The notes beneath the pieces were generated by a model. It had not been told where the DNA came from. It saw only the letters and a list, made by a program, of their open reading frames with translations, and ran no database searches. A stretch of DNA of 48,742 bases, taken from assembly GCA_030017895.1 (NCBI GenBank), contig JASEGV010000016.1, forward strand, positions 1-48,742. The letters are read 5' to 3'. Both the position numbers and the translations under genes were made by a program. Source of the stretch: Bacteroidota bacterium. GTDB taxonomy: Bacteria > Bacteroidota > Ignavibacteria > UBA10030 > BY39. This document shows, one piece after another, positions 28,458 through 31,276 of the stretch. Numbering within the stretch: the first letter of the stretch is position 1; each line of letters opens with the position of its first letter.

Positions 28458-30077
28458 CTATCTCCTCTGAAACTCACGGATTATTTTGTCAACCTCGTCT
28501 TCCGATATTCCACTTCCTAAAACATTCCCGCTTTTTGGTGAAGTAATTTTTTCTGTTTCTTTTACCGGCTGGGCTGAACCTTTTTTCCAAACTGGAATAT
28601 TCCCCGCTCCTTCACGTAAATGCTGCTCGATTTTTTCTATCCAGGATTCCGCCGTCTTAATTTCTGCAGTTGTCTTGGCAGCTTGCGGTTTAACAAATAT
28701 CGGCTCGCCCGCTTGTGAAGGATTTACAGGTCTTGTTTCAAACACGAGTCGCTTTATGTTAATCAGATGTTTAGCGGAAACATTTTCAGAAATAATCGAG
28801 CCTCCGATTGTTCCGGGACCGAGTGTGAGGGATGGCAGAAGCTCGTTTGTCCCGCCAACTGCGCCAAATGCCGCCTGCGTATTTACCAAAATTCTTGAAG
28901 CTGGTTTCTCGAGTGCAAATTTCATTATAATATCTTCATCGGACGAGTGAATAACCAGAGTATGTCCTAACCCGCCAAATTCAAGAAGTTCGATGCAGCG
29001 ATGGCAAGCGTCACGCCAATTAAGTTCTGTGTAGAACGAAAGAACAGGCGATAGTTTCTCGCGAGAGAGTGGAATGTTCTTTCCGACTGCGTTTAATTCG
29101 GCAATTAAAACTTTTGTGTCGGATGGAACTTGGATACCTGCTTTTTCAGCAATAAACAGAGCCGATCTGCCCACCATAGCTGCGTTCAAGTGTCCTTCGT
29201 TATCAAACATCAGGCGCGAAAGTTTTTCTTTAGCTTCTCCTTCCACAAAGTAACCACCAAGCCGTTTGCACTCTGCAACGACCTTATCTTTTATGGGTGA
29301 ATCGCAAATGAGCGAAGATTCAGTCGAGCATAGCACACCATTATCAAATTGTTTTCCCGATAAAACATCGGCAACAGCTTTTTGTATGTTTGCAGTTCTC
29401 TCGATGAAAGCTGGCACGTTTCCGGGTCCAACTCCATAAGCAGGTTTGCCTGAACTGTAAGCTGCTTTTACCATTGCTCCGCTGCCGGTTGCGAGAATTA
29501 CACCGGTTAATTTATTTCGCATCAATTCATTTGTACCTTCGAGTGTCGGCTGTGTCATACAGTGTATTACTCCTTTGGGTGCACCGACAGATTCAGCAGC
29601 TTCACGTATTAGCTTGGCTGCTTCCAACGTTGAGTAAATTGCTTTCGGGTGTGGGCTTGCAACTATTGCGTTTCTTCCTTTTAAGGAAATGATCGCTTTG
29701 AACATCATCGTTGATGTTGGATTCGTAGATGGAATTAAAGCGGCAACTACTCCCATCGGTTCGCCGATTTCGATAATCTTCTTCTCGCGGTCTTCGCGAA
29801 TCACACCTGCTGTTTTCAAATCTTTGATTGATTCCCAAACTCGCCTTGTAGCGAATTCATTTTTCTTCTTTTTGTCTTCAGGTTTTCCGAAACCGGTCTC
29901 CTCGTAAGCCATTTTACCCAAGAGTTCTGCCGCTTCGTAACCTGCATCTGCCATTGCTTTCACAATCTTATCGACACGTTCCTGATTGAAGGCGCGGAAT
30001 TCCTGAACAGCTTCATTCGCTTGTTCTAATAAATCGCGCACTTCCTGTATTGATGCTAAATCTTTGTATGATGACAT
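28458..30077 (-). CDS. CoA-acylating aldehyde dehydrogenase with C-terminal extension
   Basis: 539 residues. The core (about 1-450) resembles the acetaldehyde dehydrogenase half of AdhE and the EutE/PduP enzymes: PMGVVAALIPSTNPTS, catalytic Cys250 (QFDNGVLCSTESS), FGGLGHTLVIHS, GAVGGTNELLPSLTLGPGTIGGS. It would interconvert an aldehyde and its acyl-CoA using NAD. Residues 451-539 are an extension: a helix near 469-490, a Gly/Ser/Pro/Lys-rich linker (about 493-523) and a terminal amphipathic helix ISEDEVDKIIREFQRR (524-539), the pattern of a bacterial microcompartment encapsulation peptide. No alcohol dehydrogenase domain follows. It begins 9 bases after the upstream barrel gene; ribosome binding site AAAGGAA. 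Confidence 0.9.
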   Translation of the reverse strand: MSSYKDLASIQEVRDLLEQANEAVQEFRAFNQERVDKIVKAMADAGYEAAELLGKMAYEETGFGKPEDKKKKNEFATRRVWESIKDLKTAGVIREDREKKIIEIGEPMGVVAALIPSTNPTSTMMFKAIISLKGRNAIVASPHPKAIYSTLEAAKLIREAAESVGAPKGVIHCMTQPTLEGTNELMRNKLTGVILATGSGAMVKAAYSSGKPAYGVGPGNVPAFIERTANIQKAVADVLSGKQFDNGVLCSTESSLICDSPIKDKVVAECKRLGGYFVEGEAKEKLSRLMFDNEGHLNAAMVGRSALFIAEKAGIQVPSDTKVLIAELNAVGKNIPLSREKLSPVLSFYTELNWRDACHRCIELLEFGGLGHTLVIHSSDEDIIMKFALEKPASRILVNTQAAFGAVGGTNELLPSLTLGPGTIGGSIISENVSAKHLINIKRLVFETRPVNPSQAGEPIFVKPQAAKTTAEIKTAESWIEKIEQHLREGAGNIPVWKKGSAQPVKETEKITSPKSGNVLGSGISEDEVDKIIREFQRR

Positions 30078-30086
30078 ATAATTCCT

Positions 30087-30836
30087 TTATAATGAATATG
30101 TTAATCCTATGTATGGAAATTTAATAATCTCGAACTTGTCTCTATCTCTAAAAAAACTAAATCGTGTGAAAACAAATGCTAATTCTGAAACAAAATTACT
30201 TCTATAAGCTCTTACACCAATTAAGAATAATGATAACTCGAATCTGTCATCATAAGTTTGTGGTATCATTCCTTCAGCTATGAATTTAACGCCCCCTTTT
30301 TCTTTGCTCGAAATAATTGTTTCAAATCCAACCTGTGCCCAACTGTGTGAGTTGCTGTATTCAGTTTCTTTCTGAAAAAATTGTGTAATGTTAAAGTGAA
30401 GTTTTGTATAATAAGTGCCTAAACTAAATGAAAGATTTCCATAAAAATTTTCACCCGGATTCGTATCTGATGAAAATAATTTATTTGCGATAAACCAATC
30501 GGCACCGATTGCAACGCCCCTAACCAAATCGTCGCTTTGGTAAATTTGGAATTTTGCACCGGTTCCTAAAAACGAGGAACCCCATATCGGTAAGTTGGTT
30601 GTGAGGTTTAAATGAAAATAATCTGTGATTGCATAACCGCCTTGAATCAGATAAAAGGTGTACATACTTCCCCAAAATTTTCCCTTTGGGACGGTGTTAC
30701 CTGTCGACATCCAGAAAAGCCGATTCTGAACTGGGTCAGATACGGTTACCACATTTTCAATATTACTTTCTTGGCAAACGGATGCGGATATAGGTATCAG
30801 GGGAAAAGATAATATTAATATCGATAATAATTTCAT
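30087..30836 (-). CDS. Predicted outer-membrane beta-barrel protein
   Basis: 249 residues with a signal peptide (MKLLSILILSFPLIPISASVC) and about ten amphipathic segments (YAITDYFHLNLTTNLPIWGS, LSFSLGTYYTKLHFNITQFF, FELSLFLIGVRAYRSNFVSELAFVF), ending in a typical C-terminal strand, FPYIGLTYSL. I do not recognise a named family. Its ATG overlaps the stop of the DUF296 gene by one base (TAATG) and its stop lies 9 bases before the aldehyde dehydrogenase start, so it is translated within the same operon. Confidence 0.75.
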   Translation of the reverse strand: MKLLSILILSFPLIPISASVCQESNIENVVTVSDPVQNRLFWMSTGNTVPKGKFWGSMYTFYLIQGGYAITDYFHLNLTTNLPIWGSSFLGTGAKFQIYQSDDLVRGVAIGADWFIANKLFSSDTNPGENFYGNLSFSLGTYYTKLHFNITQFFQKETEYSNSHSWAQVGFETIISSKEKGGVKFIAEGMIPQTYDDRFELSLFLIGVRAYRSNFVSELAFVFTRFSFFRDRDKFEIIKFPYIGLTYSL

Positions 30837-31276
30837 TAAATGAGATTTTTATTTTTCCACAAGAACAAATTAGTTGTCTCTTCTTTTTCGCGTACTAAAT
30901 CTTCGCCTGTATATTCATCGATGAAAACTTCGCAGGCAAATACTTTTGTGCCAGGCATCAGATGTCCGCCAAAAACTTTTCCTTCTTTATCGCTGAGTGT
31001 AATATGTGTATGGACGAAAGGTTTTCCTTCTCGGATACTCACATTACCGGTGCAGTTTAAAATTTCATAGCCACCGTTCAACTCAATTGTATTGTACTCT
31101 TTTTTAATCTGGTCAAAATATCCGATGATAGCATTTGTAACCGCACCGATAGCTGTAACTTTTCCGATGCGAATATCTTCTTCGGTTACAATTTTTGTGA
31201 GTGCATCATATAAATCTGAACCTGACGGAATTGCACCGATAAATGAGCGTTTGTATTTGTATTGTAGTCTAAACAC
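30836..31276 (-). CDS. PPC/DUF296 domain protein
   Basis: 146 residues matching the Plants-and-Prokaryotes Conserved (DUF296) fold: an N-terminal SGSDLYDALTKIVTEEDI, IGAVTNAIIGYFD, and the His cluster FVHTHITLSDKEGKVFGGHLM, then VFACEVFI. Bacterial members are trimers with bound metal; in plants the domain is fused to AT-hook DNA-binding motifs, which are absent here. Function is unknown. It heads the five-gene run with the aldehyde dehydrogenase. Confidence 0.88.
   Translation of the reverse strand: MFRLQYKYKRSFIGAIPSGSDLYDALTKIVTEEDIRIGKVTAIGAVTNAIIGYFDQIKKEYNTIELNGGYEILNCTGNVSIREGKPFVHTHITLSDKEGKVFGGHLMPGTKVFACEVFIDEYTGEDLVREKEETTNLFLWKNKNLI

What the first reader, a model, noticed from the sequence alone, without database searches (positions are those of the whole stretch)
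28458..30077. Aldehyde dehydrogenase with a microcompartment-type encapsulation peptide but no shell genes nearby
Seen: after the CoA-acylating aldehyde dehydrogenase core, an 89-residue extension ends in a Gly/Ser/Pro/Lys-rich linker and an amphipathic helix ISEDEVDKIIREFQRR. Known: bacterial microcompartment cargo enzymes, including aldehyde dehydrogenases, carry short helices of this kind behind flexible linkers. Inference: this enzyme is packaged in a shell encoded elsewhere, or the helix binds another scaffold. The window has no BMC-H or BMC-P shell gene, and its neighbours are barrel proteins, a DUF296 protein and a DNA glycosylase, which is not a known microcompartment layout.
Basis: partly seen in the sequence, partly recalled or inferred. 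Interest (0 to 1): 0.65.

Follow-up and report, generated by a model that had tools for sequence, protein, structure and literature searches.

The report
Scattered microcompartment enzyme for deoxyribose breakdown
This bacterial enzyme carries a likely address tag for a protein-shelled organelle whose shell genes are scattered elsewhere in the genome, and a second tagged enzyme suggests that the organelle breaks down the sugar of DNA, which would give a job to an organelle type whose function was unknown.

Summary
Window 28458-30077 (-) encodes a 539-aa CoA-acylating acetaldehyde dehydrogenase with a variable tail ending in a conserved helix; the window has no shell gene. The genome, however, encodes a shell scattered over four other contigs: two BMC-H, one PduT-like BMC-T, three BMC-P. 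In 197 genomes of the class, dehydrogenase and shell genes occur together in 67, shell alone in 6, neither in 123, and a dehydrogenase homologue without shell in 1 (44% identical, tail lacking the helix). Single-contig genomes show the scattering is real. This matches the published FRAG microcompartments, reported from Ignavibacteriae with no known signature enzyme. New here: a deoxyribose-phosphate aldolase (DeoC) elsewhere in the genome has an N-terminal encapsulation-like helix; such extensions align in 67 shell-bearing and 4 shell-free genomes (two of these inspected: the helix is gone). One relative has DeoC, RpiB, this dehydrogenase type and shell genes in one compact SPU-like locus. Best reading: the enzyme is cargo of a dispersed metabolosome that splits deoxyribose 5-phosphate and turns the acetaldehyde into acetyl-CoA. 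Encapsulation and flux are inferred, not shown. A neighbouring deoB gene is weak support only, because that block is inherited synteny.

The parts
28458..30077 (-). CoA-acylating acetaldehyde dehydrogenase, 539 aa, with 89-residue C-terminal tail
   Evidence: ORF; TIGR02518 above cut-off; closest solved structures 3k9d and 5j78
28728..30065 (-). Catalytic core, about residues 5-450; Cys250 (29328-29330), inferred catalytic cysteine, invariant in the alignment
   Evidence: alignment A1 of 18 orthologues; phmmer alignment to 3k9d
28599..28646 (-). Middle tail motif SWIEKIEQHLREGAGN, residues 478-493
   Evidence: W479, I483, R488, A491 invariant in A1; related motif in the other sampled orthologues except G013 and G085; predicted helix 479-490 at low confidence
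28521..28598 (-). Variable linker, residues 494-519
   Evidence: variable length and sequence in A1; pLDDT below 50
28461..28520 (-). Terminal LGSG plus encapsulation-like helix ISEDEVDKIIREFQRR, residues 520-539
   Evidence: conserved pattern in orthologues; predicted helix 526-538

Best explanation
The enzyme is a core cargo protein of a bacterial microcompartment whose genes are dispersed over the genome. Its C-terminal helix, on a flexible linker, would dock in the groove between shell hexamers (or to other cargo helices) and so load the enzyme into the shell. [quoted passage not shown] NAD+ might be regenerated by electron export through the PduT-like shell trimer and the RnfC/PduS-like flavoprotein encoded near it, since no PduL and no clear iron alcohol dehydrogenase was found. 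Shown by sequence: the tail, the shell genes, the co-occurrence, the DeoC extension, the PduT-type cysteine. Inferred: docking, encapsulation, substrate flux, electron export.
For: Shell genes on four other contigs. Together in 67 of 197 genomes, AldDH alone in 1, shell alone in 6, neither in 123, Fisher p 2.6e-44. Terminal helix conserved behind a variable linker. BMC-H keeps AMVKAA and AATDAGAAAA, the segments reported to form the encapsulation-peptide groove of PduA. DeoC with N-terminal helix-like extension, tracking the shell (67 versus 4 genomes). AldDH model is acetaldehyde-specific by NCBIfam. Compact locus RpiB-DeoC-BMC-P-AldDH-BMC-H in G085. PduT-like BMC-T with the aligned cysteine near an RnfC/PduS-like gene in several genomes. 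In G033 DeoC lies within 5 kb of the BMC-P pair.
Against: No experiment. The genomes are related, so co-occurrence is not a count of independent events. The helix moment is unremarkable. DeoC is a housekeeping enzyme, so its link to this shell rests on the extension. The DeoB-BMC-P adjacency is a single inherited block that also holds rpoD. No PduL and no clear alcohol dehydrogenase, so the standard recycling is missing.
Confidence: 0.72

Rival explanations
1. The enzyme is cargo of the scattered shell, but the aldehyde comes from another source and DeoC's extension is a separate matter.
For: DeoC is a common enzyme; FRAG types were reported without a signature enzyme; no gene adjacency of AldDH and DeoC in the own genome.
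Against: DeoC extension tracks the shell; shell-free members of genus g6 have lost its helix; G085 has the two enzymes in one shell locus.
Confidence: 0.18
2. The tail is not a packaging signal but a structural or partner-binding element of the enzyme itself (tetramer contact, or contact with another cytosolic scaffold).
For: The middle motif is at least as conserved as the terminal helix; tetramer packing was not modelled.
Against: Orthologues with this terminal helix were found only in genomes that also have shell genes, contig-cut copies aside; the model shows a detached helix.
Confidence: 0.08
3. The scattering is an assembly or binning artefact, and the shell genes belong to another organism or to one broken locus.
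For: The genome is a 176-contig assembly with the shell genes on four different contigs.
Against: Contamination is listed as 0.7%; the same sets occur in the close relative G162 and, far apart, in single-contig genomes such as G113, G180, G183.
Confidence: 0.02

Closest known systems
FRAG microcompartments (Sutter et al. 2021, PMC8217296)
   Same: Shell genes at several genomic places, three BMC-P genes, reported from Ignavibacteriae, AldDH mostly away from the shell genes
   Different: No signature enzyme was named there; here a tagged DeoC is proposed. Shell-protein trees that define FRAG subtypes were not tested
SPU (sugar phosphate utilization) microcompartments
   Same: DeoC and RpiB as signature enzymes, acetaldehyde as the intermediate, AldDH; the compact G085 locus in this class has this content
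   Different: No main locus in this genome; whether its RpiB is cargo is open; no PduL
HO microcompartment (Haliangium ochraceum)
   Same: Remote DeoC with EP-like N-terminal extension noted in some genomes, BMC-P triplet
   Different: HO has a main shell locus and other BMC-T types; here the BMC-T is PduT-like
Melioribacter roseus BMC-P satellites (Axen et al. 2014, PMC4207490)
   Same: An ignavibacterium with seven BMC-P genes spread over five loci
   Different: Described there as satellite loci beside a PVM-like locus; no function given to the dispersed genes
PduP/EutE-type BMC aldehyde dehydrogenases
   Same: Core cargo enzyme with a terminal encapsulation peptide on a linker
   Different: PduP carries its peptide at the N-terminus; here it is C-terminal with an extra middle motif

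Membership tests
Acetylating acetaldehyde dehydrogenase (TIGR02518) | Score above the curated cut-off | tested here: met
   634 versus 620.1 bits
Encapsulation peptide | Short terminal helix behind a poorly conserved disordered linker | tested here: met
   conserved terminus, variable linker, predicted helix
Encapsulation peptide | Marked amphipathicity | tested here: inconclusive
   moment 0.58, shuffle p 0.06
Encapsulation peptide | Directs cargo into a shell | not testable with these tools
   needs an experiment
FRAG microcompartment | Shell genes at several places, remote from one another | tested here: met
   four contigs; far apart in single-contig relatives
FRAG microcompartment | BMC-P triplet | tested here: met
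   three PF03319 genes, on C35 (two) and C19 (one)
FRAG microcompartment | Shell proteins fall in the FRAG clades of the published trees | not tested
   reference trees not at hand
SPU microcompartment | DeoC-type aldolase (pfam01791) as cargo | tested here: inconclusive
   DeoC with helix-like N-terminal extension that tracks the shell; cargo status is inferred
SPU microcompartment | RpiB (pfam02502) as cargo | tested here: inconclusive
   second RpiB on C11 with added EutQ-like N-terminal domain; no linkage to shell genes seen
SPU microcompartment | Main locus with shell genes and these enzymes together | tested here: not met
   genes on separate contigs; met only in relative G085
Canonical metabolosome core | PduL phosphotransacylase (PF06130) | tested here: not met
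   no match in the genome; Pta-family genes present
Canonical metabolosome core | Iron alcohol dehydrogenase (PF00465) | tested here: not met
   only two weak partial matches, 33 and 24 bits

The most novel reading that the evidence does not exclude
The scattered (FRAG) microcompartments of Ignavibacteria are a deoxyribose metabolosome fed by DNA debris, with tagged DeoC and AldDH, no PduL or alcohol dehydrogenase, and electron export through a PduT-like iron-sulfur shell trimer and an RnfC/PduS-like flavoprotein; it may descend from a compact SPU-type locus that broke up while protein tags kept the organelle together.
Probability: 0.4. Interest if true: 0.72.

Novelty: new variant of a known kind. 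Interest (0 to 1): 0.56.

Why it matters
FRAG microcompartments were published as enigmatic, with no signature enzyme. A tagged DeoC together with a tagged acetaldehyde dehydrogenase gives a testable substrate (2-deoxyribose 5-phosphate, plausibly from DNA) and shows that cargo can be assigned by tags and co-occurrence when a gene cluster has dissolved. It would make an organelle found across a class of mostly uncultured bacteria part of the recycling of environmental DNA.

Tried and rejected
The DeoB-BMC-P adjacency looked decisive (26 of 30 loci) until rpoD proved equally constant on the other side: downgraded to weak. Pattern scans of the fetched loci for further proteins with the same C- or N-terminal helix found none, but they cover only fetched stretches and the patterns are narrow. 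Pfam gave no reliable family for the extra domain on the second BMC-H. The hydrophobic moment was not a strong argument. The first DeoC query had wrong coordinates. Paper searches for a function of FRAG compartments, or for phosphopentomutase with microcompartments, found no assignment in the held library; subscription papers are not covered.

Full report
The gene. Window 28458-30077 on the minus strand is an uninterrupted 539-codon ORF starting with ATG. It matches the NCBIfam model for acetylating acetaldehyde dehydrogenase above its curated cut-off and is closest among solved structures to 3k9d and 5j78. The core runs to about residue 450; the rest is an 89-residue tail. The three other aldehyde dehydrogenases of the genome show no such tail.

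The tail. Thirty loci from named public genomes, mostly Ignavibacteria or Bacteroidota metagenome assemblies, and further sampled genomes of the class were compared. The tail has variable linkers and two constant pieces: a middle motif, [WF]xxxIEExxRxxAGN in most sequences, and a terminal helix with the pattern GxGISExE(V/I)xxII(R/K)EF. The AlphaFold model has low confidence overall (mean pLDDT 59) but shows a disordered stretch and a separate terminal helix; it cannot test packing on the tetramer. This fits the published description of encapsulation peptides as terminal amphipathic helices of about 18 residues on disordered linkers (PMC12339742).

The shell. [quoted passage not shown] The BMC-T aligns over its full length with PduT, including the cysteine at residue 41; that PduT binds an iron-sulfur cluster there is from my own knowledge. 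The BMC-H contains the two helix segments reported to form the encapsulation-peptide groove of PduA (PMC11157265).

Co-occurrence. In 197 genomes of the same class the AldDH (E at most 1e-80) is in 68, BMC-P in 73 and BMC domains over the cut-off in 75. AldDH and shell occur together in 67, AldDH alone in 1, shell alone in 6, neither in 123 (Fisher p 2.6e-44). The exception G042 has a 44% identical homologue whose different tail lacks the helix. Of the six shell-only genomes, G035 and G045 are 79% and 68% complete; two of the others were inspected: G119 has an EUT-like compact locus, and G096 has BMC genes beside a divergent AldDH. The genomes are related, so the p-value does not count independent events; but shell-bearing and shell-free members exist within the same genus (g6, g13) and within several families, so joint loss probably happened more than once (inference).

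The scattering is real. In single-contig genomes the genes lie far apart, for example G113: AldDH at 0.87 Mb, DeoC 2.30, BMC-H 2.32, BMC-P 2.42; G180: 2.08, 3.75, 3.09, 2.70 Mb; G183: 1.91, 3.06, 2.64, 3.52 Mb. In the 30 named loci no shell-gene homologue lay on the fetched flanks (up to 10 kb) of the AldDH; its usual neighbours are ruvB, a PCC/DUF296 gene and a methylpurine glycosylase gene.

The partner enzyme. The genome's DeoC (contig C23) carries about 70 residues before the aldolase core, beginning MNNSEIERIIKLVLNDYP. Across the class, DeoC alignments that start inside this extension occur in 71 genomes, 67 of them shell-bearing; in most shell-free genomes the alignment starts at the core. 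The four shell-free cases are G177 and G188, where helix and Cys motif are gone and only a remnant aligns, G139 (78% complete) and G095 (not inspected). Shell-free G166 keeps a helix-like start without the Cys motif. In G085 the order is RpiB with a helix-like N-terminus, DeoC, BMC-P, AldDH ending in SPQEIERVVRQVVNEILETKRSS, BMC-H: a compact locus with the two enzymes that SPU microcompartments share. The own genome has a second RpiB (C11) with an added N-terminal domain resembling the start of EutQ, and a plain RpiB; whether the former is cargo is open.

How it would work. [quoted passage not shown] AldDH converts acetaldehyde, CoA and NAD+ to acetyl-CoA and NADH. The usual recycling enzymes were not found: no PduL and only weak PF00465 matches; Pta-family phosphotransacetylases exist. 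An RnfC/PduS-like gene lies beside the PduT-like gene, directly or one gene apart, in G000, G162, G150, G082 and G119, which suggests electron export through the shell; this is inference.

What is known. Sutter et al. describe FRAG microcompartments: shell genes at up to six places, a BMC-P triplet, found in Ignavibacteriae among others, mostly remote from known enzymes, without an obvious aldehyde-producing enzyme; for the HO type they mention remote DeoC with EP-like extensions (PMC8217296). Axen et al. noted scattered BMC-P genes in Melioribacter (PMC4207490). So the dispersed shell is known; the tagged DeoC as its likely signature enzyme in this class is, as far as the held library shows, not stated.

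Limits. Nothing here shows encapsulation. DeoB next to BMC-P in 26 of 30 loci was at first persuasive, but rpoD is just as constant on the other side, so it is one inherited block. FRAG membership by shell-protein phylogeny was not tested.

Noticed in passing
window 28599-28646 (-): A second conserved tail motif, SWIEKIEQHLREGAGN, lies between core and terminal helix; it is absent from the AldDH of the compact G085 locus and from G013. Its role is unknown.
   Followed up: partly
L012 9181-9783 (-), and L110-L138: The second BMC-H has a variable acidic linker and a conserved C-terminal domain of about 42 residues (LxxLxVHxLRxLARxxxxFPIKGRxISxANR); Pfam gives no reliable family, one weak Rho_N hit.
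   Followed up: partly
L017 1438-2337 (-), and L139-L165: Between the N-terminal helix and the aldolase core, DeoC has a Cys motif (CxxGxCxxxxCVxH), strict form in 28 of 34 sampled extensions; it may bind a metal.
   Followed up: partly
L013 7660-10279; L186, L187, L188, L181: An RnfC/PduS-like gene lies beside the PduT-like BMC-T gene, directly or one gene apart.
   Followed up: partly
window 30836-31276 (-): A PCC/DUF296 gene precedes the AldDH, with a barrel-like gene between them, and stays close to the AldDH in many relatives.
   Followed up: no
L014 8700-11343 (-); L079-L108: deoB, two BMC-P genes and rpoD form a block conserved across the class; in many genomes two small genes are inserted between deoB and BMC-P.
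   Followed up: partly
L181 (G119), L174 (G085): The same class also holds compact microcompartment loci: an EUT-like one in G119 and an SPU-like one in G085.
   Followed up: partly
L190 1252-1947 (+): An RpiB paralogue carries an N-terminal domain about 48% identical over 44 residues to the start of an EutQ-like protein in the G119 locus.
   Followed up: partly
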